The notes under the pieces were generated by a model. It did no database searches. It had not been told where the DNA came from and was given only the letters and a program-made list of their open reading frames with translations. Made by a program: the position numbers and the translations under genes. From Chrysochromulina tobinii (Eukaryota; Haptophyta; Prymnesiales; Chrysochromulinaceae), in NCBI GenBank assembly GCA_001275005.1, contig JWZX01001884.1, forward strand, positions 1 through 34,617: DNA of 34,617 bases. The letters are read 5' to 3'. Shown in pieces: positions 7,083-34,378 of the stretch. The number at the start of each line of letters is the position of its first letter. Positions within the stretch are counted from its first letter, which is position 1.

Positions 7083-10000
7083 TCAGCCACGGAGAGCTCT
7101 CGCCGCCGGCGCGTTTGGCTCCACACCAAACTGGGGCGGCCTGGCTCGCATCGACTTGGGCGGTTTCTCCTTGGCGGCGCCCCGCGGGGTGGACGGCTTC
7201 ATCTCCTTGTCCTTCTCTTTCGCGTGATCTTTAGTGTGATCAGGGGGAGCTGGAGGCTTGACGCCGCCGCGCTTGGTGGTGGCTCCGCCGCCTCCCGTCT
7301 CGTTGCTGGCACCCGCGGGCTTAGCGCTCAGTACGGCGCTGCTGATGCGGCTGCCACGCGGCGACGGCTCGTGCTGCGCCTGCGGCGCCTTGCGCGGGGA
7401 AACCTCGCGCCGCGTCTTCTTGCCCTTGCGCTGCCGGTCGGCCGGATCGGCGCCGTCTCGGGCACCCTCGTTCCGGCCACCCGCCGCGCTGCTGCTCGGC
7501 GCCGTACTGAGCGCCTCGTAGAGCTTGGGCGGCACGTTGAGAAGCGCCAGGATGGTGGTGACCTGATGAGGCACGCAATCAGCCTGAGGAGGGAGGCACT
7601 CAGCCTGAGGAGGGAGGCACTCAGCCTGAGGAGGACGGCACTCAGCCTGAGGAGGGAGGCACTCAGCCTGAGGAGGACGGCACTCAGCCTGAGGAGGGAG
7701 GCACTCAGCCTAATGAGGGAGGCACTCAGCCTGAGGAGGGCGGCACTCAGCCTAATGAGGGAGGCACTCAGCCTAATGAGGGAGGCACTCAGCCTGAGGA
7801 TGGTGGTGACCTGGTCCCTCAGCCACGAGGGCTCGGCACGGCGCGCGATGGCGAGGAAGGGTTCGGTGGCGTTCGCCAGGAGCATCCCCGCACGAGCGTC
7901 CGCGTCGTGCGCCAGATTAGAGAGCGTCGCGAGCGCCTGCCCGTGTGCCTCGCACCCGTCGTCACGCACGAGCTCGATCAGCGGCGCGAGAGCCCCAGCC
8001 TCCACCAGCCGCCGCTTGTGCTGCGCCGCCTCGGCGGTTTCGCCTTGGGTGAGCCCCCAGAGGGCGCAGCACGCGTGCTTCTGCGCGCTCGCACTGCCGA
8101 GCGAGAGCAGCGTCACGAGAGGCCCCACGCCTCCCACGTTGACAATCGCTCGCTTCGCGACACCCTTGTCCTTTGCAAGGTCGGCCAGCACGCCAGCAGC
8201 AAAGGCCTGCGCCTCCGCGCTCTCGTCACGGCTGAGCAGGGCCACGAGCGGCACGATGCCCCCTACCTTGACAATGGTCGCCTTGTTCTCGCCCTTGGAC
8301 CCGCCGAGGTGCCAGAGCGCCTCGGCCGCGTAACGCGCCGTCTCGAGCTTCTCCGAAGAGAGCAGGGCGACGAGCAGCGGCACGCCCCCCGCGCCCGCGA
8401 CGAGCTGCTGCCCCTTGGTGGTGGCCGCGATGCGCGAGAGGCACGCGCACGCATGCAGCTGCGCCTCGCGCTGCGCCGACGGGATGAGCATCTGGACCAG
8501 AGGCGGCGCGCCCCCCGCCCCGATCAGCGCCTCCTTGTTGGCGGCGAACTGGCTCAAGTGGAAGAGTACCTCCGCCACACGAGTCTGCAAACCGGACGCG
8601 TTGCGCCCATCGCCCAGCAGCCCGCACAGGGGCGCGATGGCTCCTTCGGCGGCGATGGCGGCGCAGTTGGCCGCCGATCGCCCCGCGAGCACCGCCAAGA
8701 TGCGAGTCGCCATGAGCGTGGCCGACGCGTTGCGCACGTGATGGAGGAGCGCCACGAGCGGCCTGACGACAGCATTCCGGTTGGCGTCGCTCGGCGCCCC
8801 GATGTGGATCAGAGCGTTCATTGCATGCCGTTGCGTCTCCTCATCCACACTGCCGAGCAGCAGCACAAGTGGGCCGATCGCGTCCAACGCGGGCCGCGCC
8901 AAGGCGAGCTGGTTCTCGGTGCAGTCGCGCACGAGGGCCTCGAGAGCGGCGGCGGCCCACTGTCGGCCCTGCTCAGTTCCCTCCGCGAGGACGCGGACAA
9001 GCGGGGCGAGACCCCCCGCCCGCGCGATGCCCAGCTGATTGTCTGCATTCGACGCGAGGTGCCACAGGGCGCGCGTCGGCGCATCCCACGAGGTGGTCGG
9101 CGCCGCCGACGCGCGCCCAGACTCGGCCGGTAACGCCGTCGCGGGCCGTTTGAGCATCTCGACGAGAGGCGCCAAACCGCCTTCCTCGGCGACTCGGATC
9201 TGGTTGATCACGTTCTGCTCCGCGAGTGCGCCGATCGCACCGGCCGCCCACCGGCGTGTGAACGCCTCCTCCACGCGCGCCTGCGCTGTCCCGGACGCTG
9301 TGCCCGGCACCGCGGACCCTTGCGCCGCCGGCGAGCCCGGCGCTGTCCCGGGCGCCGTCCCGGGCGCCGTCCCGGGCGCCGTCCCGGGCGGTGCGGGCGG
9401 CGGTGCGGGCGGCAGTGCGGGCGGCGGCACGATTTCCACTTGCGCAACGATGAGATGAGACGTCTTGATCAAGGAGCTGAGCATGGAGGACGCGCTATGG
9501 GTATGCCTGAGCTTGGTCCAGGCCGCCGAGGACGGAGGCATCGTGAGTGCCGGCCCCAAGCTGATCGGGATGACAGCCGCCGTCTCGAGCGCCATCTGCC
9601 TTGGGTGGAGCGTCGTCTCGAGCGCCTTCGTGGAGGGCTCCAGTCGACGCAGCACGGCGACCAACGGCTCGAACGCCCCTTCCTCGGCGATCATGTACTG
9701 CGTGTCGGCGTTGCCCATGCCAATGAATGCAAGGGCGCGCGCTGCCAGCGCTGACGGGCCGAGTATCGGCTCGTACAGCCATTGCACGAGCTGCGTGATC
9801 GCGCCCGCAGCCGCGATCTCGAGCTGCGTAGCATGCACCTTCGCCATGGCCTCGGCCCCGTCGCCGTCCGCTTGGGCCAAATTGGCGAGCGCGCTCGCGG
9901 CGTGCCGCTTGGCACCTGCACTCCCCATCGAGAGGAGCCGAACGAGAGGACGCACGCCGCCCGAGCGAACGATCGCCGCCTTGTTCTCGGCACGCACTGC

Positions 10001-13000
10001 ATCGTCGACGCCCTCCACCTCCGAGGTGACGCTCGCGAGGACGGAGGCCGCGTGCTCCTGGGCGGCCGTTGAGAGCTCCCGCGTGACCATCACGTTGATG
10101 ATGTCGTGGGCGCAGCACGCACGCGCGACGGCGCGTCGTGACGCGAGGTCCGTCGACTGCCAGAGCAGCCAGAGCGCGTACTCCTGCGCTTCCGCCGAGC
10201 CGAGCCGGAAGAGGCTGACGAACCTGAGGAGGGAGGCGAGCACGGGTCGTCAGCACGGGTCGTCAGCAGGGCTCGTCAGCACGGGTCGTCAGCAGGGCTC
10301 GTCAGCACGGTTCGTCAGCAGGGTTCGTCAGTTTGTCATGAGGGAGGCGGACGAACCGGTCAATGCCACCCGCCATCGCGACTGTCATACGCGTCTCGGG
10401 ACTCGTCGACGCTGCCATGTCCTTGAGCGCCGTCGCGGCGCGCGCGCGCACCGCGTCTGACTCGTTGCCAAGTAGCGTCACAAGCTGCTGTGTCACCTGC
10501 AACCAGAGGCCAACCGAGGGCCATCGGTGGGCCATGAGTGTCAGTGTCATTGCAGGGGTCCGTCAGTGCATCATCACACGGGAGCCACTCTCGGCACTTG
10601 CCTGCACTCGGATCTCCGGCGATCTGAGAGCAATGTGCGAGAGCGCCGACCCTGCCAACGATTGGCCAGTCGGCGTGCCATCGCGCAGCTGGCGAGCGAG
10701 CTCGGGGATGGCGCCCGCCTTTGCAAGTGCGCCACGGCTCTCCGAGTCGAGCGACAGGTCGCGTACCAGTCTTGTCACGTGTTCTTTCGCGCTGACGGAG
10801 CACTGCCTGGCGCCACTGCCCGTTGGCATGCTGGGCGGGGAGGCAGGTGCATGCGATCAGGTGCATGCGATCAGATGCATGCGATCAGATGCATGCTGGG
10901 CGGGGAGACAGATGCATGAGATCAGATGCCGTTGGGTGCACTCGGGTGCACTCAGATGCACTCAGTGTGCACTCCGGTGCAATCAGGTGCAATGTGCTCA
11001 GGAGATCCTGTGCAATCAGAGGCAATCAGAGGTGTCAATCTGCCCCCCTCGAGATCGTACCTTAGCATGGAGACGAGCGCCTGCGCGACAGCCCCCTGGT
11101 TGGCGCTGTTGTGGACCACGAGGGCCGCCAGGCTGGCTGCCGCCTCGGCCTTGGCCACTTCCGTGCCGCTCTCAAACAGAGCGGCCAGGGGCGGGATAGC
11201 TCCTGCCTCGGCGATACGCACGCGGTTCTCGGGCAGCGCAGCAAGGGCATGCAATGCCCCAGCGGCCGTCTCCTGCGCGCCACGCGTAAGCACAGCCGCC
11301 GCCAACCCCTCTCCCACGAGCGCGCTGGGGGCAGAGAGGAGCGAGATCAGTGGCGCGAGGCCGCCCTCGTCGGCAATGCGCCGCTGGTTCGCCTCGTGCG
11401 CCGTAGCTAGCGCCCATAAGGCTCCGGCCGCGCTCTGAGAGGTCATCAGAGCATTCCGACGGTCCTCAACTGCGCCGCTCACGCTGAGCAGGGCGATGAG
11501 CAAGGGCACCGCGCCGCACTCGGCGATCGCGGCTTGATTCGCCGGGTTGGACGCGCCGAGGTTCCACAGCGCACAAACGAGCTCGCACGGCAGGTACACC
11601 ACTTCAGAGGGCAATGCTCCACATGTACTCTCCGTGGGTGCCACCGGCGCAGGGTACACTGGCGTCGTGTTGGGCACATGTTCGGCGCGCGCCGCCGCCA
11701 TCCGCGCCGTCTCGAGCGCCGTCTCGGCTCTCAAGAGCTCAACGAGTGGCTCGATGGCACCCACAGCTGCGAGGGACACCTGTGGGGAGGGAGAGGAGGA
11801 GGTCATCGGGCTGTGGAAAAGGGACGTCGGTGGGAAGGAGGGCTGTGGGCGAGGGCTGTGGAAGGGATGTCTGTGGGAAGGAGGGCTGTGGAAGGGGGGC
11901 GAGGGCTGTGGAAGGGATGTCTGTGGGAAGGAGGGCTGGGGGTGAGGGCTGTGGAAGGGCCACCTGGTTGGCTGGATTGGAGCGTGCGAGGCTCGCGATC
12001 GCACGTGCCGCTTTGGCGGCCGTCTCGGCCTCCGACATGCCCGGACTGCCGCTACCTCCTGGGCCCTGTGTGGAGCGACCTGCGGAGCGCTGTGCGGCGG
12101 CGGCGGCAGCCGGTGGTGGCCGTGGTGGTGACGGCGAGGTCAACAGCTTGCCCGACGACGATGTCGGCATGGTCGTGGGCGCCGTGTAGGTGGGTGAGGC
12201 CGCGGCCGCCGACGCAAAGGAAACCTTGCGCGCCGCCGCCGCCGCCGTCTCTCGATGCCCTCTTTGGCCGAGAAGCCCCACAATCTGGGTCGCAATCTCG
12301 TCGCGATTAGACGGATGCTCAAGTGCGATGGCCGCGAGCGCTCCGGCCGCCTCGCGTTGCGCACGCACGCCACCCGCGCCCACAAGCGCCACGAGCGGCG
12401 CGATCCCACCCGCGATCTGGATGAGCTCCTGGTTGGCGGCATGGGGACCGGCGGCCAGGGCCCAGAGCGCCGCCGCGGCCTCCTCCCTGGCAGCGCTCGC
12501 CACGCCGGGCTGCTCGAGTAACCACACGAGACGAGGGATGCCACCTGCCCTCGCCACCTCGGTCTGGTTCAGCCCGTGCTCACGACTGATCTCCCCGAGC
12601 GCCTTGGCCGCGTGCGCACGCACCTCGTCGTCGTGCGTCGCTCCCTCAAGGAGGCGCACGAGCGGCAGCACGCCACCCGCGACTCGGATCGCCTCCTGGA
12701 TCGTCCTGCTGCCTCGCGCGAGGCTCGCCAGCGCCCCCGCGCCCTTCAAATTGCACCTCGCGCAGGTCTCCCGAAGCAGCTGCACCAACGGCCCGATCGC
12801 CGACGCTCCAAAGATGAGCTCCTGCGTCTCCGCGTTGCCGTCGGCGAGGGCCCAGAGGGCGCCTGCCGCCTCTGAGCGCGCGTGAAGCATCTCGAGCGCC
12901 GCCTCGTCCATAGGCGTGCCGAGCTCCTCCTGCACTGTCTGACGAACCTCTGACGAACCCCTGCCGAGCTCCTCTTGCGTTGCCTCCGCGGCGGCGGCGG

Positions 13001-16000
13001 CGGCGGTGGCGGCCGCGGCGGCGGCGGCGGCGGCGGCGGCGGTGGTAGTGGCGGCGGCGGTGGTGGTGGTCGTGGTGGCGGCAGCGCAGCGATGCACGAG
13101 CGGTTCGATGGCGCCTTCTTTGGCCACCAATATCTGCACCGTACTCGAGCTCGCGCACATGTCCGCAAGCACCGCCGCTGCCTTGGCCTGCGCCAACGGA
13201 CTAGTCGAGCCGAGGAGCGCGATGAGTGGCTTGATGCCCCCCTTGCTCGCAATCTCTTGCACGTGCTCGACCGAATCGCCGGATAGGTGCTTGAGCACGG
13301 CGGCCGCAAGCTCTTGCGCCTTGAGGCTCGTCGATCCGCCCCCCTTGATTTGCAATACCAGCCTCTCTATAGCGCCGGCTTCGGCAATCGCGCGACGGTT
13401 GTCCTCATTCTCGGCCGCGAACTTGAGGAGCATTTGGGTCACGTGCACCTGCCCCTCGGCGGATCCCGCGCCGAGCAGAGTCACCAAGCCCGTCGCAATC
13501 GCCAGTTGGTTCGACGGGTCGCCTTGGGCGAGGCATGAGAGGGCTCCGACGGCGGCTTCCTTGGCCGCGATCGTGCCGCTGCCCAGCAGCGCAACGAGGG
13601 GGGAGATGGCGCCCGCGTTGACGATGCGCCCAGGCGCCCCAGGGTGGCTCGCGGCGAGATCCCACAGCGCACACGCGGAGCGTTGCTGAGCGCCCTCGTT
13701 GCGGCAGCCGAGGAAGCTCACCTGATGAGGGAGGCCATACGAGACCGTCAGAGAAAATCAGAGGCCAGCACAGATCTGCAGAGGCCAGCAGGAGGCCACA
13801 TCAGTGGCCACAGCAGAGGCCATCAGAGGCTCACCAGCTTCTTTGCAATCTGCGCTTGGATGTCGGCATTGTTGCGCGCGAGCCGATCAAGAGCCTCCGC
13901 CGCATACACAGCCGCCTGCTCCGTCCCGTCATCAAGCAGCTGCACAAGAGGCCCGATGCCCCCCGCCTTGGCGATGGCGAGCTGGTTGCCCACATCGACG
14001 GACAAATGCCACAGTGCCGACGCGGCTCGTTCCTTCGAGAGAGGCGCCCCCGTTGTGACCAGTGCCACGAGTGGGATGATGCCTCCGGCGGCTGCGATGG
14101 CGCTCAGTCGATCGCCGCCTCTCCCAGCCGTCGTGGCGGGCAATGCAGCGGCTGTCGCCGCTGCGCCCCGCTCGGATGCATTCGTCGCTGTGGGTTCGTC
14201 GCTTGCCATCGAGAGCCCCATCCCACAAGCCTCAGCACCGGCGTGCTCCACAGTCGGTTCGACCGTCGTGCTCTCCGCCCACGTGAACGAGACCACCATG
14301 CCATCGCTCGCCCTCGCATCCACATGGCACTCGAGGCTGCTCACAATGGCTAGCGGGCCTGCATGCTTCTCACGAGAGGCGCTGGTGGACGCGGCAGCTC
14401 GAGTCCCGTCCATTGCGAGCTCGCCGCTCTCGTCACCGCCACCCGCCTCCTTCAGCTGGTGCTGGTGCTGGTGCTGGTGCTGGTGCTGGCGCACCGCCTC
14501 GCGGGCTTCCCGTTCGAGGATTGCCCCCTTGGCAAGATCCGAAATGACAGCGGCCGCGAGCTCCTGCGCCTTGACGGATCCGGAACGTGAAAGCGCCACG
14601 AGCTCGGAGATAGCCCCCGCCTCGACGAGCGCGCCCTGGTTGGCGGTCGAGGCGCACAGGTGCCAGATGGTGCGTGCCGCGTTCTCCTGCGCAAGGCTTG
14701 AGCCGAGGCGGATGAGTTTCAGGAGCGGACCGACCGCGCCGTGCGCGATGATGCTCTCTTGCATGGTCTGGTCGCTGTACGTGAGGTCGGCCAGCGTGGC
14801 AGCGGCTTGCTCCTGGATGCCAACGACGCTGGACGCTGCGGCGGCACGCTCCGGGTGCTCTGCATCCGCGGCGGAAGCTGCAAGTGCTGCGCCCTGGTCC
14901 ATGCCGAGTACGCCCGCGGTGAGCTCCCACATCCTCGTCGCCGTCTTCTTGTTTGGGATCGCGTGGAGCATCGAGATCACGCGCGCGACGCCGCCCGCTG
15001 CCGCAATCGCACGACGGCGCTTCTCCCCTGGCTTCCCCGCCACCGGCACCCACTCCATGCGCCCAAAGATCCTGCCCTGCGGCTTGAGCTCCGCCTCGAA
15101 GTCGATCACATTCTCCGTCCGGAGGCCGTCGAGGCTTACGAAGGCCTCTCCAATCTGAGTGTCCTTGGCCATCGGATCGTCGGCAGACACGTCATCCGAG
15201 TCGAAGACGCGCACGACGAGCCCGCTCCGGACCCCCAACGGCGCGTTCCCCTTCCCGTTCCCACTCCCGTTCCCGTGCGCGTTCCCGACGAACTCCGCCA
15301 GGGCCCCTTGCATCACAATCTCCTCCTCCCAGATTGGGTTGAGCGTCTTGGGGATCACTCTCGTGCGCCGTATCTGGCCCGCCGACGAGAGCGTCGCATA
15401 CGGGTCCGATGTACCTGCAGATCTCGACAGTGGCCATCAGAGGTCATCAGAGGACATCATGAGGTCATCAGAGGATGCAGTGGCTAGTGGCCATCAGTGG
15501 CCATCAGTGGTCATCAGTGGTCATCAGTGGTCATCAGTGGTCATCAGTGGTCATCAGCGGCAGCCCGAGGAGGCAATGTACCTGCGGATCTCGACGCCGG
15601 TCGCCGACGATCCGAGAGGGCGCCGTCCAGAGCGCCGCCCCCGCTCGCGTCTGGCGCCTCGTCCGCTGCAGCGAGCTTCACCGCCTTGCGCACGAGGATG
15701 CGCATCTGCCCATGGCCGCTGAGCCGCGCACGGAGCTCTTCCTTGATCTGCGCGCCAGCCTCGGACGTGCCTGTTGGAGCTTCGGGCAGTGAGCCGCCAT
15801 CGTCGGGCGTGTCACGCGCGTCCCTGGCCAGGTGCGCGAGGGCGCGCGCGGCAGTCTCTGGCGTGCCCGGCACCGCGCTATCGAGCAGCTCGACGAGCAT
15901 GGCGATGCCGCCCGCGTCAGAGATCGCGTCCCTATTGACGGGTGCCAGCCCCAGCTCGGCCAGCGCGGCGGCGGCTTGCTGCTGCGCTGCGCTCGACCCT

Positions 16001-19000
16001 TTTCGAAGCAGTGCGACGAGTGGCGAGACGCCTCCTACCTCGGCGACGGTCAGTGATACGATCGGATTCGAGCGACTCAACCGTCCGATAACAACGGCCG
16101 CGAGCTCTTGCAGATGCTCATCCTCGCTCGAGAGCAGCTCGACCAGGGGCGCCAGCCCACCCGCCTGCGCAATGACCACCCCCACCTCACTGTTCCCCGC
16201 GAGATGCCAGAGAGTGCGCGTCGCGTACTCCTTCGTCTCGAGGCTCGCCTTGCTCACGAGCTCAATGAGCGGCTGGATGCCGCCCGATTTGGCAATGGTC
16301 TCCTGCAGCACAAAGTGATTCGTCGCGAGAGAGAGCAACGCTCGCGCCGCCTCGCGCTGCGCGTCCATATTAGGCACGCGAACGTCCAGGCCGCCGGAGA
16401 TCCACGAGATCAAACTGGGCACCGCGCCCGCCTTCGCCAATGCGAGCTGGTTGGACGGGTTCTCACTGGCAAAGGTCGAGAGGCATCGAAGGACGCGCAC
16501 CGCGCCGCCCGCCGTCTGCACCATCGCGATGCGAGAGGCCAGTCGACCGACGAGCTGCTTGCAGATCTGCTCGCGGTTATCGGGATGCTTGCCCGCGAGG
16601 CTCACGAGGGCGCTGACGGCGTTCGCCTGTGATGACGTGTCCGCACCCGCCTCTGCCCATGCACCGCCATCGACGAGGAGGCTGACCAGAGGCTCGATCC
16701 CCCCCAGCTTGGCGATCGTCGACTTGTTCGAGACGTTGTCCTCCGCGAGGGCCCATATGGTGCGCGCGGCGGCGTCGCGCACCTGCGACGAAACCGCACG
16801 TAACCACACGGAGCCATCGGGTGTGGAGTCAGAAGCAGGTCTCTGGCGTGCCATCAGAAGCAAGTCTCTCGGATGCAAATCAAGAAGCAGGTCTCTCGCA
16901 TGCAAATCAAGAAGCAGGTCTCTCGCATGCAATGGGGTGTACTCAGCGCAGTCCGCATGCAATCAGGCGCCAACGGGTGTGGACTCAGAAAGGGATCCTT
17001 CACACCTCGTCGCTGCCATCCTTGACAAGCCCGCACAGTGGCGCGATGGCTCCCGTGCGTGCGACAGCCGTCTGGATGTCAGCATGGTTGCGTGCAATCG
17101 AGGCGAGCGCCATCGCCGCGTTCGCCTGCATCTCGGCGATCGGGCTCGAAAGCACGGTGATGAGGGCCGGGATGACGTTCGCGTCGGACATGGCCGACTG
17201 GTTGGTTCGGTTGCCCTCGCACAGCTGTGCGACGGCGCGTAACGTGTTGTTCACCAGCTGCACCGCGCCCATCATCTCCTTGCTATTTGAGCACGTGCTC
17301 ACCAGCACGTTGGCAATGAGAGGCACGCCGCCCGCATCGGCGATCCGCTGCTGGATCGCATGCGACTTGTACGCGAGCTGCGTGATTGCATTGACCGCAT
17401 TCTCCTTGGCGCGCGCTGAGCCGCCTAATAGCGCGAGCAGGGGCTCGATGCCGCCCGCGTCCACAATACTGAGCCTGTTGTCCGACGAGTCCTGCGCGAG
17501 GTTCGCGAGCGCAGCCGCCGCCTGTTCCTGTGCCCACGAGCCGTCCACCTCATCAAAGGGGTTGTCGTCGAGCATGCTTACGAGCTTCTCGATGATGAGT
17601 TGACGGTTGGCGTGTTCGATCGAGAGTCGCACCTGAGGAGGGAGGCACTCGGGTGATGAGGGAGGCACTCAGCCTGAGGAGGGAGGCACTCATGTGCACT
17701 CAGACCGTGACGAGGGCACCCTCGGTAGTCAGGGAGGCCACGGCCATCCCGGCTATCCGGTCACTCGCGAGGCCATCACGCCCATCACGCCCATCACGCC
17801 CATCACGCACGAGAGCGCCCTCGGCATGGTTGCGTGCGCGCGTGTTGTTCGTGCCGAGTAGCTGCACAAGAGGCCCGATGCCACCTGCCTCCGTGAGCTC
17901 GAGTCGGTTGGCGGCGTTGGCGGCGAGGGCGTAGAGCGCGCCCGCCGCCTCCTCCTGTGCCTTGTCGCCACAGGAGCCCCCGAGCAGGTTGACCAGCGGC
18001 GAGGTGGCACCCGCGACCGCAATGGCCATCGCCACATTGTCGCTGTCGTGCGCGAGGCGAGCGAGCGCCGAGGCGGCAAACTGACGGCCGGCGTCCCGCC
18101 CATTGTTGAGCAGCTGTACCAGAGGAGCAATGCCCCCCATGCCCACGATCTGGCCGCGATTGTCGGCGACGAGCGCTAACTCGGCGAGCGCCGCCGCCGC
18201 GTATTCTCGCGCACCCTCTCCCTCGTCATCTTGGGCCGTGCGGGGAGTTGACCTCGCATCCACAATCGCGATGAGGGGTGCGATGCCGCCCGTACTCGCA
18301 ATGTCCTTCTGCGCGGCAGTGCAGCCGCTCGCGAGGCGATAGAGCGCGGCGGACGCCTGCTCCCGCGCCACGCCGCTCGCGCTGCGCAGTGCCGTGATCA
18401 GGGGCTGCACGCCCCCCTCGGCCAGGATGATCGACTGGTTGCTCGTGTCGATGGACAACGACAGAGACCAGAGGGCGTAGTCCTTCGCCTCCGCCGCGCC
18501 ACGCTTGAGGAGAGTGATCAAGTCGGCCGCGGCGCCCGCACGGGCGATCTGGGCCTGTGAGCTCGGATTCTCCATCACGAGCTGCCACAAGCAAGTCGCC
18601 GCCGCCGACATGACCTCGAGGGCACCGGCCCCGAGCAGCGCCACCAGCAGGGACGTCACCTGCGCCTGGTTGGCCACATTCTCCTTGCCGAGGGCGAGGA
18701 GGGCGCGGGTCGCAAGCTGCTGCCCTCGCGCACCTCCTGTCGCGAGGAGCATGATCAGAGGTGCGACCCCGCCCGCGGATGCGATCGCCACCTTGTTGGG
18801 CATCTGCTGATCCGCGAGTGACCACAACGCACCCGCCACCTCGGCCTTGACTTCTGGCGTGCCTGTCCGAATTAGAGCGACCAGCTGGGTGATAGCGCCA
18901 AGGTCCGCCACGGCGCCCTGGTTGTCAGGGTTGTCGCGGCAGATGGCGGCCAGGGCGAGCGCTGCCATCGCCTGCATCTCGGGCGTGCCGCTCGCGCTCA

Positions 19001-20019
19001 GCATCATCACAAGCGGTTGGAGCCCGTTCATCCGGGCGATGGCCTCCTGATTGTCGCGGTGCATGTGGGCGAGACGCGCGAGAGCTCGAGCGGCACTCGC
19101 CTGCTCTCAGGGGTGATCCGGGGTGGTCAGGCGAGTGATCAGGGGGCAATCAAGGGGCATTCAGTGGGTCATCAGTCGGTCATCAAGCTGCACTCGCCTG
19201 CGCTTGAGGGCTGCGCCCAGAGAGCAGGGAGAGGAGTGGGAAGATCCCTCCCGCCTTGGCGACACTCTGCTGCACCTCCCCGTTTTCCTCGCTCAGCTCG
19301 GCGATCGCCGTCGCCGCGTGGCACTGCGCCGCGACGTTGGCCCCACTGAGCAGTTGGAGCAGTGGCGCGATCGCTCCCTCGCGTGCGATGGCCTCCTTGT
19401 TGACGGCGTGGCCCGCGCTCAGCTGGGAAAGCGCGAAGGCGGCCGACGACTGGATCTTGCCGCTCGTGAGCATGGCGACCAGCAGCGGCACCGCCCCCGC
19501 GCGCCCGACGTCGTCCTGCACGCTCGAAGCGCCCGCGCAAATGTTGGCCACGCACACGGCGGCGTGCATCTTGGCGTCGTCGATGCCCTGACGCAGCAAG
19601 CGCACGAGCGGAGCGACGGCCGTCCGGATCGGCGCCGCATGCGCCGGCAGCTCGGACAGTGACGACAGCGCAAAGGCCGCCTGCTGCTGCACCTTGTTGC
19701 TGCCCGTGCGGAGCAGCACGATGAGCGCGGGGATGGCGCCTGCGTCAGCGAGGGCGGTCTGCCGTGCGGCACTGCCCGCACCCACGTGCCCCAAGGTCGT
19801 CGCCGCCGCGAGCTGGCCCCCATCCGTGCCCTTGGACAGCATCTGGATCAGCGGGCCAAGCGCACCCGCCTTGACGAGCGCCGCCGCATGCGAGCTCTCG
19901 CCATTGGCATCCTGCTTGGACGCGAAAGCCGCCAGCCGTATGGCGACCTTTTCCTTGGCCTCCATGGGCACGGATTTGAGGGTGCGGATCTCTTCCACGA
20001 GGGTGTCGTGCATGCTCAT
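7083..20019 (-). CDS. Giant armadillo-repeat protein with an internal C2 domain, 11 exons, 3744 residues
   Basis: Exons on the minus strand in transcription order: 20019-19198, 19100-17811, 17632-17006, 16782-15582, 15414-13835, 13721-11964, 11779-11061, 10806-10602, 10496-10357, 10223-7811, 7562-7083. They sum to 11235 nt, exactly 3745 codons with the stop, and every junction keeps the armadillo register. Repeats of about 42 residues (AGGIxPLVxLLxxGSxEAKExAAxAL) fill nearly the whole chain. Residues about 1263-1420, across exons 4 and 5, form a C2 domain: MRILVRKAVKLAAAD, TSDPYATL, VIPKTLNPIWEEE, and the calcium-loop VFDSDDVSADDPM. The last exon is a basic, Pro/Ser-rich tail. Low-complexity loops interrupt the array (PGTA repeats, His-Gln repeats, Ala/Thr run). 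Plant CSI proteins, which guide cellulose synthase on microtubules, also join armadillo repeats and C2, but with C2 at the C-terminus. A scaffold role is inferred. Start: first ATG after an in-frame TAA; another ATG lies two codons on. Confidence 0.88.
7563..7810 (-). repeat. Armadillo gene intron 10, 21-nt minisatellite
   Basis: 248 nt. The perfect 17-mer CAGGTCACCACCATCCT lies at both junctions (7797-7813 and 7549-7565). The body is about eleven 21-nt units, CAGGCTGAGTGCCTCCCTCCT with small changes. Read without splicing it is open (LRLSASL repeats), but the following exon is then in the wrong frame. Confidence 0.9.
10224..10356 (-). repeat. Armadillo gene intron 9, TGCTGACGA array
   Basis: 133 nt, phase 2. 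Donor CG|GTTCGTCCGCCTC, acceptor CGCCTCCCTCCTCAG|GTTCGTCAGCCTC: a 14-nt junction repeat with one mismatch. The body is an array of about 12-13 nt units such as CCGTGCTGACGA. Confidence 0.88.
10497..10601 (-). other. Armadillo gene intron 8 (probably GC-AG)
   Basis: 105 nt if the donor is CAG|GCAAGT, the classic GC-AG donor. A GT donor six nt upstream (10607, CGA|GTGCAG) is also in frame. The GC choice restores VQVTQQLVTLLG, like AQVTSLLVALLG elsewhere in the array. Acceptor GGTTGCAG|GTGACACAG. Confidence 0.65.
10807..11060 (-). other. Armadillo gene intron 7
   Basis: 254 nt. Donor AAG|GTACGATCTC. The acceptor is least certain of the set: GCGCCAG|GCAGTG gives MLRQCSVSAKEHV, which matches the armadillo spacing residue for residue, but two upstream AGs (exon start 10815 or 10830) also keep the frame. 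The body repeats GATCGCATGCACCT and GAGTGCAC words. Confidence 0.65.
11780..11963 (-). repeat. Armadillo gene intron 6, CCTTCCACAGCCCTC array
   Basis: 184 nt. Donor CAG|GTGGCCCTTC, acceptor CCCCACAG|GTGTCCCTCG; CAGGTGKCCCT repeats at both. The body is an imperfect array of CCTTCCACAGCCCTC and CTTCCCACAGACATC units, so it holds many internal AG dinucleotides after pyrimidine runs. Confidence 0.85.
12980..13090 (-). repeat. GCN/ACN trinucleotide run inside armadillo exon 6
   Basis: A nearly pure run of GCC and ACC codons on the coding strand gives an Ala/Thr-only segment of about 30 residues between two armadillo repeats. It is in frame and probably a length-variable loop. Confidence 0.85.
13722..13834 (-). 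other. Armadillo gene intron 5
   Basis: 113 nt. Donor CTG|GTGAGCCTC, acceptor GGCCTCCCTCATCAG|GTGAGCTTC; the repeat is GGTGAGCYTC. The body contains several CTGATGTGGCC- and TGGCCTCTG-like words. Confidence 0.87.
15415..15581 (-). repeat. Armadillo gene intron 4, CCACTGATGA array, inside the C2 domain
   Basis: 167 nt, phase 1. A 20-nt direct repeat with one mismatch spans the two junctions (15576-15595 and 15409-15428; GTCGAGATCYGCAG|GTACAT). The body is a run of 10-nt CCACTGATGA units. Splicing joins the first C2 strands to TSDPYATL. Confidence 0.88.
16783..17005 (-). repeat. Armadillo gene intron 3, minisatellite body
   Basis: 223 nt. Donor GAG|GTGTGAAGG, acceptor TCGCAG|GTGCGCGAC. The body holds three units of about 27 nt, core GCATGCGAGAGACCTGCTTC. 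Splicing gives SDEVRDAAARTIW, a clean armadillo helix. Confidence 0.85.
17633..17810 (-). other. Armadillo gene intron 2, with a CGTGATGGG array
   Basis: 178 nt. Donor CTC|GTGCGTGATG, acceptor CCTCCTCAG|GTGCGACTC; GTGCG is repeated at both. The body begins with four CGTGATGGG-type units and ends in the shared tail GTGCCTCCCTCCTCAG. A second possible donor at 17705 would keep 105 nt (35 codons) in frame, but the armadillo pattern favours 17810. Confidence 0.75.
19101..19197 (-). other. Armadillo gene intron 1 (GC-AG)
   Basis: 97 nt. The donor reads CAG|GCGAGT and the acceptor GAGAGCAG|GCGAGTGCC. The 11-mer CAGGCGAGTGC occurs at both junctions, and a GT donor cannot keep the frame, so this is a GC-AG intron. 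The body has GACTGATGACC-like units, and an inverted copy of the repeat (CACTCGCCTG) lies inside. Confidence 0.8.
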
Positions 20020-21312: not shown

Positions 21313-21376
21313 AATTGAATAAGATGCGTCCATTCATACCAAAATTCACACTTTGCGGCGGACTCTCTTCGCTACT

Positions 21377-24300
21377 ATGGAAGCCTCGCTAGAGGGGCCG
21401 CCGCAGGCCTCAATGAGCGCGCGGCTTGCTGCGCTCCAGCTGCATTCCTGCGGGAACAGCAGCAGTGGCACTCAGTGGTGGGCAGAGCGCGCGGCGCTCG
21501 ACGGTATCGCCGTGGAGCTCGAGGCCTCCAACTTTGTCGTCCTGGACTCGGTCCTGGGCGCATCAACAGTGGCGTCGTTGAGAGCGGAGGTGGAGGGCGT
21601 GCGGCGCGCAGGGCGGCTGAAGGCGTCAGAGCTCGGTGGTGGACGCACGGGCAGCAACGTGGCGTTCACGCGAGCCGAGGCCCGAGGCGACAGCATCGGG
21701 TGGTTCACTGGCGGCGAGGCAGCGCTCTGGCCGGATGGTACGCTGGCGCGGTATCTCGACGTCCTCGACGGGCTGATGGGCGCGCTCGGGAAGCGTGTGC
21801 CACAGCTTCGGGCAACCACGAAGCGCTCGAAGGCGATGATAGCCTGCTACCCGGGCAGCGGCGCGCGCTACGTGCGCCACCACGACAACGCGTGCAGCCG
21901 GAGCGAGGGCGAGCAGTGCAACGGGCGGCGGCTCACGGCCATTCTGTACCTCAACGAGGGGTGGGAGGTTGCCCATGGCGGCCATCTGCGCCTCTACCCG
22001 CCGTACAAGCCCGACGCAGCCAAGGAGGCCCTGCAGGAGCTGCAAGCGTGGTTATTGACGCAGCACGACGCTCCCGATGCTGAGATGGTCGCGCACACTT
22101 TTCACGAGCGGCTCGCGGAAATCACGACAAATGACGATGCGCCGCCGTTGTGCGACGTGGCACCGATCGCCGACCGCCTCATCCTCTTCTACTCGGACTA
22201 CCGCGTGCCGCACGAAGTGTTGCCTGCCCATCGGGATCGACTGGCGGTGACCGTCTGGTATTTCGACGAGGACGAGCATGCCCGAGCGTACAAACCCTCG
22301 GAGGAGACGGACGCGTACGAGGCGCTAGCGGTGGCGAAGCAGATGCGTCGATGGCGCTCGGACGCCGCCGCCACGGGCGGTGGTAGCGCCGCCGACGCCG
22401 CCGCGCCTCGGGGCGTGACTTCCTTATTTGGAAGTACCGAGTCTCTGGACGTGCCCGGCATGGAGCTGTGCCCGATCCCCGACAAGGGACTCGGCCTCAT
22501 CGCGACCCGCGCCTTTGCTCCCGGCGAGCGCCTGATTGCCGAGGCGCCTCTGGTGCTCTGGGAGAGTGCGCGCGGCGCGGACGGCGAGCACAAGTGGTCG
22601 GTGCTTGAGGAGCTCGTGGAGGCGCTTCCGGCGGGCTCACGGCGCGCGTTCGATGGTCTCATGGATAAGTACGCTCCCGACGACCAGTTCAAGACCGCAA
22701 GAGGCATCTGGAACACGAATGCCTTTCGCACGGAGGATGTTCTCGGCGACGGCAAGGCGGCGCAGTGCGATGGCGTGGAGCGATCCGCCGTCTTCCGAGT
22801 GTGTTCACGCCTCAACCACGCGTGTCGTCCGTGCGCGCACGTCGCATGGAGTGCACGCTTGGGGCAGCAGACGGTGCACGCGGTGCGCCCGATCGCGGCG
22901 GGCGACGAGGTAACCATCGCATACGTCGCAGGCGCCGATTGCATGCTGATTGCAACTGATTGCCTCCCTCATCAGGTGACCATCGCATACGTCGCAGGCG
23001 CCGATTGCATGCTGATTGCAACTGATTGCCTCCCTCATCAGGTGACCATCGCATACGTCGCAGGCGCCGATTGCATGCTGATTGCAACTGATTGCCTCCC
23101 TCATCAGGTGACCATCGCATACGTCGCTGGCGCCGAGGCGGGCGGCCGAGCAAGCCGCCAGGCCCACCTGCAAGCGAAGTATCATTTCGGCTGCGTGTGC
23201 GATGTGTGCGAGCTACGCGGCACGGCGCAGCAGGCGAGCGACGATCGCTTCGAGCGGCTTGCATGCATCCACAAGACATTGTCGAGCGTGCCGCCTTTGG
23301 AGCTCGAGGCGACTGTGGCGGAGAGTGTGGCGCTTCTGAATGCGGAGGGGTTGCCTCTGGTGTGGGCGAAGGCAGGCATGCTGCTCGTCATCGTGCAGCT
23401 CAAGCAGTCTGCCCGTCTCGGCCGCGCCGCTCACTGGGCTCGTCGAGGCGCCGCCGCAGCCACCTTCGCTCTCGGCGACGACTCGGCCACATTCCTCAAG
23501 TTTGCCAGCTTGGCGCAACTCTTTGGGCAAGCGGCGGGGGACGCCGAGGACGACGCGCCGGACACCCCCGACGATGCAGGCCGTTGGGCGTGGCTTCCTG
23601 CAGCGAGGGCTGTATGTGCCGCCGCGAAGGACGTCGCCGCTCCGAACGGCGCCCATCACGGCGCTCAGCACGCCGCTCCGAACGGCGCCGCCGCCGACGC
23701 CGACCCGGCACCGCCGTCCGATGCGGACGAGCCCTCGATGCACTCCGTCTACGTGGCTGGTGAGGGGCCGACGATCTTGCCCTCCTAATTGCCTCCTAAC
23801 TGCCTCCTAATTGCCTCCTAATTGCCTCCTAATTGCCTCCTAATTGCCTCCTAATTGCCTCCAGGTGAGGGGCCGACGATCTACGAGCGCGCCCAGGACG
23901 ACGCCACATGGCTGGCCGACGGCCGTGCAGGGCCGCGCGTGCTGCGCTTCGGGCTCATCAGCCATCGGCAGCGCTGGGCGCATCGACTCTGGCCGGCCGC
24001 GCAGGTGCTCGCGGCCCATCTGGATGCGCATCCAGAGCATGCACGCGGCCGAGCCGTCCTCGAAGTCGGCGCAGGCGCGGCGCTCCCGTCCGTGGTCGCC
24101 GGGCTGCTCGGCGCGTGCGCGGTCGTGACCAGCGACTGGCCCGACGCGCGAATGCTGGCCAACACGGCTGCGAATTTGAACGCCAACTTGGCGCCGGAGA
24201 TGCACCAGCGCGTGATGGTGGTCGGATATGATTGGAATACGCCGCCCCACCCGCTTCTGGGCGCGCTCGATGCGATCGTGAGCGGCGGGGCGCGCGCTGC

Positions 24301-25248: not shown

Positions 25249-28200
25249 TTACGACACCTCGACGGCGGCCGCGCTGCCCTGGGCATGGCGTTTCGCCTGA
25301 TCGAGCTCGCCAAACGTCTTGACCGTGCAGTCCCGCACGCTCCAAAACTCGGTGACGGCCCGTTGCAAAAAGTAGGCATCGTGGCTGACCACGACGACGG
25401 CGCCCGTGAACTCGCGCAGCGCCGTCGCGAGCACATCGACCGTCTCCATGTCGAGATGATTGGTGGGCTCGTCAAGGAAGAGGAGGGTGGGCTCGGACCA
25501 TGTGATCGCGCACAACACGACGCGCGACTTTTGGCCGCCCGAGAGCTTACCCATGGGCAGCCACGACATGCCGTCGACGATACCGAAGCCGCCCAGCCGA
25601 GTGCGCACCTCGGCCTCCTTGGAGCCGGGGAAGCGGGCCATCAAGAACTCAGTCGGCGTCTGGTACAGGTCGAGCTGCTCCACAAAGTGCTGTGCGAAGA
25701 TGGCAGAGCGCGCGCTCCGGTTGACCTCGATGGTCCCAAAAGTCGCCGCGAGCTGCGAGGTCATCAGCTTGAGTAGGGTCGACTTACCCGCTCCGTTGGC
25801 GCCGAGGATGCCAATCTTGGAGCCGAGGGAGACGGAGAGGCTCAGGTTGCGCAGCAAGATCTTGGGTATCGCTGGGGGGGGGACTGAGTACCCAAAGGCG
25901 GCGTCCGTCATCGTGACTAGATGCGGGCGCTTGAGCGGCGGCGGCGGCGGGAAGACGATCGCGATCGTGGCCTCATCCGTCTTCGCATCCGGATCGGCGA
26001 CGACGGCCCTCGTCCTCCATCTTCGCCAGCTGCTTCTCGCGCTGCTTCGCCTGCGCCACCACGCCCGCATGCCTCTTGTTCTTCTTGTTGTCCGCGCTCG
26101 AGTTCTTCGCAGGGTCGTACTTGTCGACGAGCTCCTGCATGTGCTTCCTCTCGAGCTGCTGCGCCTCGTACCTGTGCGGAGAGGGAGGGCGCCGTGGTGA
26201 GCTCGAGCGCCGTGCCGAGCGCTCGCATGCGCCGCCTCCGCTCGCGCCGCCGCGGGCGCCTCGTACCGCCGCTTTTGAGCGATGCGCTGCTCAGCCATGG
26301 TCTCGACGTACGCGGAGATCGAGCCCTTGTAGTGCGTGAGCGTCTTCGACTTGATCTGGATCACCTGAGGAAGGTTGCACTCGGCAGGCACTCAGCAGGC
26401 CCTGCCGCATCGCAGGCGCTCAGAGGTCATCATCAGAGGCCATCAGCTTCGAGATCGGATCTGGATCATCATCAGAGGCCATCAGCTTCGAGATCGGATC
26501 TGGATCATCATCAGAGGCCATCAGCTTCGAGATCGGATCTGATCATCATCAGAGGCCATCAGCTTCGAGATCGGATCTGGATCACATCCGAGACGACGTC
26601 GTCAAGAAAGCCGCGGTCGTGCGAGACGATGAGGATCGTCGCCTTGCACGCCTGCAGCCACTTGGTCAGCCAGACGAGCGCGGGGAAGTCGAGGTGGTTC
26701 GTGGGCTCGTCGAGCAGCAGCACCTGCAATCAGAGCCAATCAGCATGTAATCAGCATGCAATCAGCATGCAATCAGAGCCAGGTGGTTCGTGGGCTCGTC
26801 GAGCAGCAGCACATCACACGGCACAAAGAGCGCCGCCGCGAGCGTCACGCGCATGCGCCATCCGCCAGACAGATGCTCGATCGGAGCGGAGGCCGTGGCG
26901 GCTGAGAACCCGAGCCCCGAGAGGATGGCGGACGCCCGTGCCGCGGAGCCGTCGAGATCGAGATCTGCCATCAAGGCCTCGGTCTCGTCCAGTCGCTTCT
27001 TGAGGCGTGCGTACACCTTCTCGTTCACGCTGCGCGCCTCGGCCGCCTTCGCATCGGCATCGAGCGCCGTACCGAGCGCCGACGCCGCGTCCGGGGCGAG
27101 AGCCTCCGTCGCCTTCGCCACGGCCTCCGCGAGCTCCGCGTGCCGCCGGCGCAGAATCTGGCCCTCGAGATCGTACCTAATGAGGGAGGCCATCAGAGGT
27201 GGACTCAGAGGGGCACTCGGAGATGCTCAGCCATGGTCTCGACGTACCTAATGAGGGAGGCCATCAGAGGTGGACTCAGAGGGGCACTCGGAGATGCACT
27301 CGGAGGCAATCACGTGCAATCAAGAGCACTCAGAGGCAATCAAGAGAGGCAATCAAGAGAGGCAATCAAGAGAGGCAGTCAAGAGAGGCCATCAAGAGAG
27401 GCAATCAAGAGAGGCTATCTGGTCCTCGCGAGATCGTACCCGAGCACCGTCGCGAGGGGGGTGGAGCCGAGATCGTGCATCGGGTCCTGCTCGACGTACA
27501 CGACCTTGAGATGCTTGGGAAAGCTCGGCAGCTCATAGCTCGCGATCGCCTTCAGGAGCGTGGTCTTGCCAGTGCCGTTGCGCCCGACAAGGCCATACTT
27601 ATGGCCCTGGGAGAGGCGCAGCGACGAGGTCTCATCGAGGAGTGTCTTGCCGGCGCCGGAGAGGAGGATGAGCGATTTGATGGCGACGTCGCGCGAGCCG
27701 CCCGCCGCCTTCGAGGCGAGGTACAGCTCGCACGCCTGCTCTCGCGCGCGCTGCGCCGCCGCCATCTCCTCCTTCTCACGCTTGCGGATCACCTCCAATG
27801 CTGGCGCACCGAGCCGAAGGGTGCCGAACTTGACGCCGCCGTTGCCGCCGCCGTCCTCCTCATCGTCATCGGGTTTGACACCGTCCAATGTGACGGTGCG
27901 CGTGGCTCCATTGGCTCGCGCAGCGGCCGACTGCCGGTTGCCAAAGGCGTCAACCTCCTCGTTGCCGATCCCACCGATCAAATAGTTGGCCACCTTGGAT
28001 GTGTCGTCACCCATTCTGAACGGCTTGTTGAGCAGGGCCGGTGGCGCATTGTCTGACGCTGCACTCGAGGATGCTGCCGGCGCGACGCTCCCGAGTCGCT
28101 CGTGCAGCGTGCGGCACATGGCTTCCGCCGCATCTTCATCCGCGGCCAGCTCATATGAGATCAGTAGGTCCCGAAGCGCTTCAGAAAGGGATTCCACGCT

Positions 28201-31706: not shown

Positions 31707-32000
31707 TTGTGTTCACACAGCTTGACCTCGAGCAGCTCTGAATGAAACGGATGTGAGCAGGTGCTTGCGTTTCGCGCCAGCTCTCGTGGGACCAGCTCTG
31801 TGAGAAACGGCTGTGAGCCGGAGCTTGCGTTTCGCGAGAAGGGGACCCGAGAAGGCACCGCACCTCACAGTTGAAAGGTCGTGCCTGCACCTCGAGGCTT
31901 TGTCGCAAAGATGGATCTCCTCCCTGGAGAAACTCGGAAATATTTCTCAGCCAACGAAAACGATTTCCGTGTCGAAATTGCCTTTTCGGGCGACGTGACG
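31707..32000. promoter_or_regulatory. Divergent intergenic region with a 44-nt direct repeat
   Basis: This region separates the carbamoyltransferase start from the secreted-protein start. Two copies of a 44-nt block (31733-31776 and 31793-31836, period 60, six mismatches by eye) start CAGCTCTG and end GCTTGCGTTTCGCG. They could be paired regulatory sites or a 5' UTR duplication. The plus frame of the next gene is open from 31881, with an alternative ATG at 31911. Confidence 0.5.
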
Positions 32001-32579: not shown

Positions 32580-32880
32580 GCGTCGATCTGTACGATGCCG
32601 TGGGGCACTAAATGCACGCGGCCTGTGTGTGTGGGGATGCTGTTGGCTGCCCGCCCTTACAACCATAAACGCCGCGCGGCGGAACGGGTAGCTCTAGTAG
32701 TGGGTGCGGGCACAATACATCGCGAATTCGATCAGTCTTGATGACGAACCGCCACGGCCACGCGACCGCACGCGGGAGTCAGGCGCGATGGAAAACACGA
32801 ACCGACACATGCGCATGAAGATCATAGTAAAAGCGCGGGGGACAGTTTTAGTGACAAGTACAACAGTAGCTGACAAATTG
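32580..32880. other. Convergent intergenic region, nothing recognised
   Basis: 301 bp between the stop of the secreted-protein gene and the stop of the transporter gene on the other strand. It must hold both 3' UTRs. I see no gene, repeat or standard polyadenylation signal. Confidence 0.5.
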
Positions 32881-34378
32881 CTAGACAGCCCGCGTCTTCT
32901 CCTTCTCGTCTGCTCTGCCACGACTGACGATGGCCGCGATCGATGCCGCAAGCCCGAGCCCCAGTGGCAATGTGTTCAAGCTCAGCCGGCGCGCCTCCGC
33001 GGGCGGAGCCTGGCCATCCGCGAGCTTGTGAAGGATCTCATCGGCGATGGCGCCCTCGACGATGTCGAGGCGCGACTTGAGTGGGAAGGTCGAGGCTACT
33101 TGGCCCGGGGTCGCCTTCGAGATCACCACCGCGCCCTCGTCGGCCGACAAAGCTGGCTTCACCGCGGAGGCACCCACTCCCTCTTCTTCAGAGCATGCAA
33201 GGAGGGCGGCGAAGATCATGAACACGCCGCCTACCCAGGTGCCGATCGAGACGGGCTCCCGAAGGGCCAAGTAGCCCATGATGCCCGCAAAGAGCGGTTG
33301 GAGCGCAGCGAATGGCTGTGCCTTCGCGGCAGAGATGGAGCGCATCGCTTCGAATTGGACTGACGAGGAGAGGAATCCGGGCACGAAGACCCCGAGCGCC
33401 ATCAGCCCAAACTGGGCCAGTGGAATGTGACGAATGCGCCGAACGGTCGCCGCAGAGGGTCCTCCGCGAGCCACGTCGAGGAGCATCACTGCCGTCGAGA
33501 TCCCTCCCATGTAACACATGCGAAGGAGGTTGAGGGAAGCCGCGCTGACCGATTGCAAGTGAACAGTCGTACGCACGCGAAACCACCCGTAAAGGAAGGC
33601 GCCCACCTGAGGACGAAAGCCATCGAACGCCATCGAACGCCATCAGAGGCTCACTCAGAGACGCAATCAGCTCGAGCCACCGCAAGGCACTCACCACGAG
33701 TGCAGCTGCCCCTCGGAGATTCAATGCAGCGGAGGTCATGCCGCTGCCATCCTGAATTCCGTCGACGACCGCCACGAGGACGGCGGCGCCGAAAGCCAAG
33801 CCGCACGCGGCCCATGTGCGTGCGCCAAAGTCACCCAGTCCGAGCAGCACCGACAGAAGCGGTACGAAGACGTTGTCGGTCGACTGGAAGATCTCCGCCA
33901 TCGCAGCGGGGACTCTGCAAGTTCCCCACACCGAAAAGAAGGAACAGAGGACCGAGAGCAGAGCGAGCTCAAAGGCGGCGAGATGCGGGCTCTGCTCGCT
34001 GTCGGATCTACCCTTGGCCCTGTCGGGCTCGCGTCTTGCCATAAAGAACTGTATCGTGCGAGTGATGGTGGCCAGGAGGCAGAGAACGTTGTAACGGACA
34101 AACACTATGAAGATCATCCCGAGCGGCTCTGCACCGGGAACCGTAGCCAACGATCGCAGGAAGACAGTGTAGCTTCCGAAACCCGCGTTTGCGAGCAGCA
34201 AAAGCAGCTTGGCACGGGCCAGAGCACCTGCCGTGACAGGAGTAAGGCCTCCTCGAAGACGATGTACGGCCGTCGCGTGCACATCCTTCGGAGTAAACAT
34301 CAAAGGCCGGCTCTGAACCCGGGCGTCGACGCTGACGGTAGCCACCAGGCACACGAGCAGGAAGCAGCTGGGAGGCAT
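32881..34378 (-). CDS. EamA/DMT-type transporter with N-terminal signal, 2 exons
   Basis: Exons 34378-33695 and 33606-32881 give 469 residues. The ATG at 34378 starts a signal peptide, MPPSCFLLVCLVATVSVDA; the following RLRGG-containing segment could belong to a plastid-type bipartite leader. Two EamA halves follow: the first from KLLLLLANAGFGSYTVF to FGAAVLVAVVDG, the second from VGAFLYGWFRVRTTVHL to GVFMIFAALLAC, about ten hydrophobic segments in all. The motif FAALQPLFAGIMGYLALREPVS is typical of the ninth segment of drug/metabolite transporters. The long polar C-terminus ends with one more hydrophobic stretch (LPLGLGLAASIAAIV). Members export or exchange small metabolites; plastid phosphate translocators belong to the same superfamily, but substrate and organelle are not shown here. 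Confidence 0.85.
33607..33694 (-). other. DMT transporter intron
   Basis: 88 nt. Donor GTG|GTGAGTGCCTT, acceptor GTCCTCAG|GTGGGCGCCTT: an 11-nt junction repeat with two mismatches. The body contains CCTCTGATGGC and two TTCGATGGC words, as in other introns here. Splicing joins GAAALV to VGAFLYGW in frame. Confidence 0.88.

What the first reader, a model, noticed from the sequence alone, without database searches (positions are those of the whole stretch)
7549..33694. Introns in five genes begin with a copy of the downstream exon start
Seen in sequence: in most of the 19 resolved introns the donor side GT... repeats the first bases of the next exon after AG. Lengths range from 5 nt (armadillo intron 2) through 11-14 nt (introns 1, 6, 9; ABC-F 1, 3, 4), 17 nt (intron 10), 19 nt (SET intron 2) and 20 nt with one mismatch (intron 4), to 32 nt (ABC-F intron 2). 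Established: introners in Micromonas, Aureococcus and others insert with target-site duplications that supply one splice site. Inference: an introner-like family used AG|GT sites here, but the duplications are longer and more variable than a fixed transposase footprint, which may point to staggered-break repair or tandem duplication.
Basis: partly seen in the sequence, partly recalled or inferred. Interest (0 to 1): 0.9.

Follow-up and report, generated by a model that had tools for sequence, protein, structure and literature searches.

The report
Tiny introns with long target duplications
In the genome of an ocean alga (a haptophyte), thousands of copies of very short DNA cassettes that carry only the end signal of an intron seem to have been inserted into genes, each borrowing its start signal from an unusually long duplicated piece of the exon it landed in, which gives a clear view of how new introns can be born.

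Summary
In detail: 11 of 18 window introns have a junction repeat score of 8 or more, against 0.29 expected from mismatched pairs.

The introns share an anatomy: exon1 | (D F)n | D' exon2. D copies the first bases of exon 2; near-identical copies measure 14-51 nt with sharp ends. F is a short dispersed cassette with a fixed 3' end (branch-point-like CTGAT, pyrimidines, CAG). F1, TGATTGCCTCCCTCATCAG, has 4,893 places within three mismatches in the 53-Mb genome (reversed control 2). A second family, F2, has 3,374 (control 66) and the same D architecture. A close allele has one SET-gene unit where the window has three; six more distant relatives have none. HSP90 points to a haptophyte.

Best reading: introner-like 3'-splice-site cassettes whose long, variable target duplication supplies the 5' splice site. 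No terminal inverted repeats were seen and microhomology marks the 5' junction, so retroposition-like insertion is favoured over a transposase; that step is inferred. The genome sample is biased towards F1-rich contigs, and no RNA was available. New variant of a known kind.

The parts
22910..23107 (+). SET-gene intron 1: three 66-nt units (22910-22975, 22976-23041, 23042-23107), each D (29 nt) + F1; D' is 23108-23136
   Evidence: close allele with one unit, six relatives with none
23760..23864 (+). SET-gene intron 2: D 23760-23777 (18 nt), filler of an 11-nt repeat CCTCCTAATTG; D' 23865-23882
   Evidence: not F1 or F2 by score
27177..27439 (-). ABC-F intron 1: D 11 nt at the 5' end, F1-type 3' end, and at 27224-27247 a 24-nt copy of another exon of the same gene (26288-26311), followed by a second F tail
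   Evidence: P0001 shows the same D followed by a different interior
26724..26812 (-). ABC-F intron 2: 32-nt D (26781-26812) repeated at 26692-26723; filler of CTGATTGCATG type
   Evidence: keeping both D copies would double the Walker B motif
26365..26585 (-). ABC-F intron 3: 12-nt D; 39-nt tandem repeat inside
26172..26266 (-). ABC-F intron 4: 11-nt D and an F2-type 3' end
7563..7810 (-). armadillo intron 10: 14-nt D, D' 7549-7562, interior of a 21-nt repeat of F1 type
10224..10356 (-). armadillo intron 9: D 13 nt with one mismatch, F1-type 3' end
10831..11060 (-). armadillo intron 7: no local D by score; its first 15 nt (11046-11060) equal the start of ABC-F exon 2 (27162-27176)
13722..13834 (-). 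armadillo intron 5: 6-nt repeat, F1-type 3' end
15415..15581 (-). armadillo intron 4: 20-nt repeat with one mismatch across both borders
17633..17810 (-). armadillo intron 2: 5-nt repeat, F1-type 3' end with the 21-nt repeat unit
19101..19197 (-). armadillo intron 1: GC donor, D 8 nt exact (12 with one mismatch)

Best explanation
These are introner-like insertions of very short cassettes (F, about 29-50 nt in the simplest cases) that carry a whole 3' splice region: branch-point-like CTGAT or CTCAC, pyrimidines and CAG. Each landed in an exon and duplicated roughly 14-50 nt of target. The upstream copy (D) begins with GT or GC and serves as 5' splice site; the cassette's own end is the 3' splice site, so splicing restores the old mRNA. 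The long D...D' repeat then lets D+F units amplify in tandem and could let the intron be lost exactly. Shown by sequence: the dispersed cassettes, the D copies, their variable length and sharp ends, and a difference in unit number between alleles. Inferred: splicing at the D start, exact loss, and a retroposition-like insertion (RNA ending in CAG copied at a nicked target; a variable second cut gives the variable duplication; microhomology joins the 5' end).
For: F1: 4,893 places within three mismatches, control 2; acceptor profile TGCCTCCCTCATCAG|GT from 263 predicted introns, each position at least 58%. D: 85 of 149 F1 acceptors have an upstream copy of the next exon start at score 9 or more, 4.1 expected by shuffling. 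Length: 22 last-unit copies with at most one mismatch and up to 45 nt measure 14-41 nt (SD 7.4), and identity beyond the end falls to 22%, so this is not decay of one fixed length; one more of 51 nt is wholly exonic. F2: 3,374 places, control 66; 23 of 40 sites with D at score 10 or more, 0.42 expected. Microhomology at the D/F junction: mean 2.0 against 0.39, permutation p = 0.0002, n = 16. No terminal inverted repeat in either consensus: 4 of 12 positions. Homology: ABC-F relatives align across the four junctions; six SET relatives lack the insert, a close allele has one unit.
Against: No RNA reads; junctions rest on frame and homology. 64 of 149 F1 acceptors and 17 of 40 F2 sites have no D at those thresholds, by decay or another origin. 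The microhomology test used only 16 junctions with self-periodic F. No partner reverse transcriptase was linked: 4 of 26 RVT_1 places looked at have no motif. A SINE-like element should also hit intergenic DNA; only 2 of 153 motifs lie there, against 8% of bases. The sample is biased, and 34 of 41 F2 sites come from two loci.
Confidence: 0.6

Rival explanations
1. Staggered double-strand breaks in exons were filled in and rejoined (giving D and D') with capture of a templated insert copied from existing intron 3' ends (giving F), for example by polymerase-theta-type repair. Selection kept only insertions that splice.
For: Variable duplication length, microhomology at the D/F junction, repetitive filler in F1, and an exon piece from elsewhere inside ABC-F intron 1. 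Daphnia new introns are explained this way, with exon repeats of 4-12 bp (PMC4202315, passages).
Against: Thousands of copies end at the same CAG in two families. F is not copied locally: last-28-nt differences 8.58 within a locus against 8.49 between loci, p = 0.61. F2 is not repetitive.
Confidence: 0.22
2. Cut-and-paste or MITE-like DNA transposition by a DDE-type transposase, as inferred for most published introners.
For: Dispersed families, target duplication, cassette brings the 3' splice site and takes the 5' site from the duplication, as in Symbiodinium (PMC9860276, passages).
Against: Duplications of 14-51 nt with wide spread against 3-9 bp reported; no terminal inverted repeats; inserts of about 29-50 nt. 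No transposase search was run.
Confidence: 0.08
3. Tandem genomic duplication of exon or of a segment across an intron 3' end and the next exon makes the new introns, as in a potato RdRp gene.
For: Explains (D F)n arrays such as the three SET units; a similar architecture is described for potato (PMC4974935, abstract).
Against: Does not supply the first F in an intron-free exon; F is shared between unrelated genes.
Confidence: 0.06
4. The pattern reflects satellite-like growth inside ordinary introns plus a strict local splice consensus, not mobile elements.
For: Many introns hold tandem repeats; 74 of 140 distinct sampled introns lack an F1 end; F1 has a 10-11-nt repeat.
Against: F2 is not repetitive and has D too. 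D matches the intron's own exon 2: re-paired controls predict 4.1 of 149 and 0.42 of 40.
Confidence: 0.04

Closest known systems
Introners that carry the 3' splice site and take the 5' site from the duplication (Symbiodinium microadriaticum example, PMC9860276; passages and sections 15 and 17 seen)
   Same: Dispersed family, cassette brings 3' splice site, target duplication gives 5' splice site, mRNA restored
   Different: There 4 bp duplication and terminal inverted repeats; here 14-51 nt, no inverted repeats, much shorter insert
Chrysochromulina sp. introners (a haptophyte, PMC9860276; figure-legend passage seen)
   Same: Haptophyte host, no terminal inverted repeats
   Different: 4 bp duplication; carries the 5' splice site and takes the 3' site, the reverse of this case
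Daphnia new introns from staggered-break repair (PMC4202315, passages)
   Different: Repeats of 4-12 bp; F here is a dispersed family of thousands of copies with one 3' end
Fungal introner-like elements (PMC4457414, search listing only) and the statement in PMC9860276 that fungal introners lack duplications and inverted repeats
   Same: Multiplying introns, an RNA route proposed there
   Different: Here long target duplications
LINE/SINE-type retroposition (recalled; no paper read)
   Same: Fixed element 3' end, variable-length duplications, microhomology at the 5' junction
   Different: No poly-A tail seen, no partner identified, far shorter insert, strong sense bias in genes
Potato RdRp intron gained by tandem duplication across an intron-exon border (PMC4974935, abstract)
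   Same: New intron = exonic piece giving the donor + copied intron 3' end; fits the later (D F)n amplification
   Different: No dispersed cassette family

Membership tests
Introner | Multi-copy family of similar introns in unrelated genes | tested here: met
   F1 4,893 and F2 3,374 places; 54 distinct F1-ended introns in the sample
Introner | Similarity near both intron ends (the criterion of PMC9860276, section 15) | tested here: not met
   Only the 3' end is shared; information content is near zero upstream of about -41, and the 5' end is the locus-specific D. So by that survey's working rule it would not be called
Introner | Creates a new intron at a formerly intron-free site | tested here: inconclusive
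   Six relatives lack the SET insert at protein level (7 of 12 hits read); no empty DNA site was seen
Introner | Spliced from the transcript | not testable with these tools
   Frame and homology fit; no RNA reads
DDE-transposon introner | Short fixed target duplication (3-9 bp) | tested here: not met
   14-51 nt, spread wide
DDE-transposon introner | Terminal inverted repeats | tested here: not met
   4 of 12 end positions match in each consensus; some published families also lack them
Target-primed retroposition | Fixed 3' end and variable target duplication | tested here: met
Target-primed retroposition | Microhomology at the 5' junction | tested here: met
   mean 2.0 against 0.39, n = 16, periodic F1 only
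Target-primed retroposition | Matching reverse transcriptase element in the genome | tested here: inconclusive
   26 RVT_1 places; one long frame reads like a non-LTR RT by eye, Pfam gives RVT_1 only; 4 of 26 loci inspected, none with the motif
Staggered-break repair neointron | Repeat of adjacent exon at the opposite intron end | tested here: met
   but repeats are longer than the 4-12 bp in PMC4202315

The most novel reading that the evidence does not exclude
The mobile agent is the excised intron RNA itself. After splicing, intron RNA ending in CAG is reverse-transcribed at nicked exons, mostly copying only its 3' cassette and duplicating 14-51 nt of target, sometimes copying the whole intron with the donor locus's D. 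Armadillo intron 7, which begins exactly at its 5' splice site with 15 nt of the ABC-F exon-2 start (and by eye has a short own repeat, CATGCYAA), and ABC-F intron 1, which holds a 24-nt copy of another exon followed by a second F tail, would be such longer copies. Spliceosomal introns would then be the retroelement, not its passenger.
Probability: 0.22. Interest if true: 0.95.

Novelty: new variant of a known kind. Interest (0 to 1): 0.8.

Why it matters
How introns arise is still debated. Here one genome seems to hold thousands of insertions in different states of decay with the duplicated target still readable, so the insertion step, the source of each splice site and later growth or loss can be dated and tested. 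The duplications are several times longer than published introner footprints, which points away from the usual transposase model. The largest published survey asked for similarity near both intron ends and removed low-complexity families (PMC9860276, sections 15 and 17), so elements with a long locus-specific 5' part, such as F1 and F2, would tend to be missed, and this kind may be commoner than known.

Tried and rejected
Gene-local copying of F: not supported. Last-28-nt differences 8.58 within a locus and strand (171 pairs) against 8.49 between loci (2,962 pairs), p = 0.61.

Family-free scan for D-F-D by direct repeats: not useful. 408 hits with AG before D', but 55-315 with eleven other dinucleotides; tandem repeats swamp it.

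Sense-only insertion: the first count, 151 of 153 in sense introns, used an acceptor profile trained on the motif and is circular. Without the profile: 143 of 153 sense, 8 antisense, 2 intergenic. With a window-trained model: 140 sense, 8 antisense, 5 intergenic; on 150-nt flanks sense beats antisense in only 54 of 77.

Foreign D as a general feature: 2 of 70,587 anchored comparisons reach score 12 (armadillo 7; and L018, which may be domain paralogy). Shifted controls gave 63, 32 and 27 hits; I think F copies mis-annotated as exon cause this, so they are no clean null, and the case rests on single examples. A first list of exon pieces inside introns (182 matches, 60 shown) was mostly F1 and F2 themselves.

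Link to a reverse transcriptase: none found in 4 of 26 places. Rfam: no match in the window.

Print: ten searches listed no report that I recognised as introners with duplications of this length or this haptophyte family. The library holds open-licence papers only; the 2023 Current Biology paper on dinoflagellate introners was seen only as a reference.

Sampling: 18 of 20 regions, and L002 and L010, lie on contigs that hit the SET intron. The four other 10-kb regions (L011, L014, L036, L037) hold one weak F1 motif, antisense, where the genome density (a different criterion) would give about 3.7.
Full report
What was examined. The window is the whole contig C861 of a 53.15-Mb, 2,253-contig assembly. 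HSP90 from the same assembly is 92% identical to Emiliania huxleyi, 94% over 88% of its length to Calcidiscus, 92% over 87% to Tisochrysis, 90% to an entry beginning 'Phaeocyst', 86% to one beginning 'Chrysoc' and 85% to Diacronema, so the organism is a haptophyte. Identical HSP90 proteins come from metagenome sources, so it is probably uncultured. A small gene finder that uses no repeat information was trained on the window and run on 234 kb, the window included.

The observation. In 18 window introns the junction repeat is far beyond chance: 11 of 18 at score 8 or more, 0.29 expected. In 222 sampled introns the exact right-hand repeat is 8 nt or more in 26, against 0.29. The excess starts at the donor and fades by about +24; on the left of the cut no position exceeds z = 2.5. 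So the copied piece begins at the splice site.

The cassettes. The acceptor profile of 263 predicted introns reads TGCCTCCCTCATCAG|GT with every position at 58% or more, far beyond a usual acceptor. The exact 19-mer TGATTGCCTCCCTCATCAG has 879 places in the genome (control 0), 4,893 within three mismatches (control 2). Many copies hold CTGATTGCATG-like repeats upstream; 29 of 122 intron interiors have a 10- or 11-nt period. A second, non-repetitive family reads GCATGCAAGTGCTCACCACGGCGCCC...CCCCACAG, with 3,374 places within two mismatches of its core (control 66). Six of 18 window introns end in F1 (13 or more of 15) and one, ABC-F 4, in F2; 74 of 140 distinct sampled introns lack an F1 end.

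The duplicated target. Of 149 F1 acceptors, 85 have an upstream copy of the next exon start at score 9 or more; shuffling gives 4.1. Of 82 with no further motif within 130 nt downstream, 38 have a copy. Of these, 28 have at most one mismatch: 22 measure 14-41 nt (SD 7.4) with 22% identity just beyond the end, one of 51 nt is wholly exonic by eye, and five (49, 57 and three at the 60-nt cap) run into F of a tandem unit. The simplest inserts F are 29-42 nt. For F2, 23 of 40 sites have D at score 10 or more (0.42 by shuffling); 19 non-tandem lengths run from 10 to 43, median 24, with F2 about 41-50 nt. Most F2 sites (34 of 41) lie in two loci.

Splicing evidence. The armadillo translation shows no stop across ten junctions. 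ABC-F aligns at 53-55% identity to P0002, P0003 and P0005 and at 71% and 73% to P0007 and P0020; P0002, P0003 and P0007 cover all four junctions, by eye without gaps there. Keeping both D copies of intron 2 would double the Walker B motif. ABC-F has a frame slip near 26030; the comparison stops before it. The full-length HSP90 in JGI data fits removal of one intron that holds an F2 core but no D.

History. A close allele (P0121, 92% over the whole query) has one 22-residue unit VTIAYVAGADCMLIATDCLPHQ at the SET site where the window has three; P0122-P0127 (47-53%) read straight through (7 of 12 hits read). So unit number varies and relatives lack the insert. The unit has no stop in frame, and I cannot tell whether P0121 comes from DNA or RNA, so some alleles might translate it. 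P0001 shares ABC-F exon 1 and the D of intron 1, then differs, as expected if intron interiors change quickly.

Mechanism. Variable duplications, no terminal inverted repeats, one 3' terminus and microhomology at the D/F junction (mean 2.0 against 0.39, p = 0.0002, n = 16) fit target-primed retroposition, or break repair with a templated insert, better than a DDE transposase. I favour retroposition because thousands of copies share one 3' end and are not locally copied. Without a motif-trained profile 143 of 153 F1 motifs lie in sense inside genes, 8 antisense, 2 intergenic, and all 41 F2 sites in sense; selection on exons explains part of this. Exceptions include a D-F-D' at L013 about 3180-3345, in weakly coding or antisense sequence, and an inverted copy of exon plus intron in L018 about 6130-6400. 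Two window introns carry exon pieces from elsewhere, the basis of the bolder reading that excised intron RNA is the mobile form.

Comparison. Known introners have 3-9 bp duplications, 4 bp in the Symbiodinium and Chrysochromulina examples (PMC9860276, passages). Daphnia new introns have 4-12 bp exon repeats (PMC4202315, passages). Amoebophrya introners have 3-5 nt direct and 8-20 nt inverted repeats (PMC7789003, passages). A survey of 213 introns reports border repeats of 4-30 bp, mean 11.4 (PMC11782384, abstract and passages). Ten searches listed no report that I recognised of short 3'-splice-site cassettes with long variable duplications supplying the donor.

Noticed in passing
genome-wide; window 26172-26266; L016, L018, L020, L023, L024, L030, L035: A second cassette family (F2, GCATGCAAGTGCTCACCACGGCGCCC...CCACAG) with the same long duplications; its 5' part holds the palindrome CTTGCATGCAAG in some copies.
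   Followed up: partly
L018 about 6130-6400: An inverted copy of an exon end plus D-F units lies inside an intron of the same gene, while the exon site it resembles (about 6860) has no intron now.
   Followed up: partly
L013 about 3180-3345: A D-F-D' structure in weakly coding or antisense sequence, perhaps an insertion that is not an intron.
   Followed up: partly
window about 26030: The ABC-F reading frame slips by one base; probably an assembly or sequencing error.
   Followed up: no
window 29126-29258: A 52-nt coding stretch near the carbamoyltransferase 3' end occurs twice with CTGATTGC filler between; borders unclear.
   Followed up: no
window 5499-6111: LRR gene with an 84-bp coding tandem repeat of about 7 copies.
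   Followed up: no
window and sample introns: GC donors make up about a fifth of predicted donors (GT 0.78, GC 0.21).
   Followed up: no
L031, L032 (of 26 RVT_1 places): Reverse transcriptase frames, one Gypsy-like and one non-LTR-like by eye, without the F1 motif nearby.
   Followed up: partly
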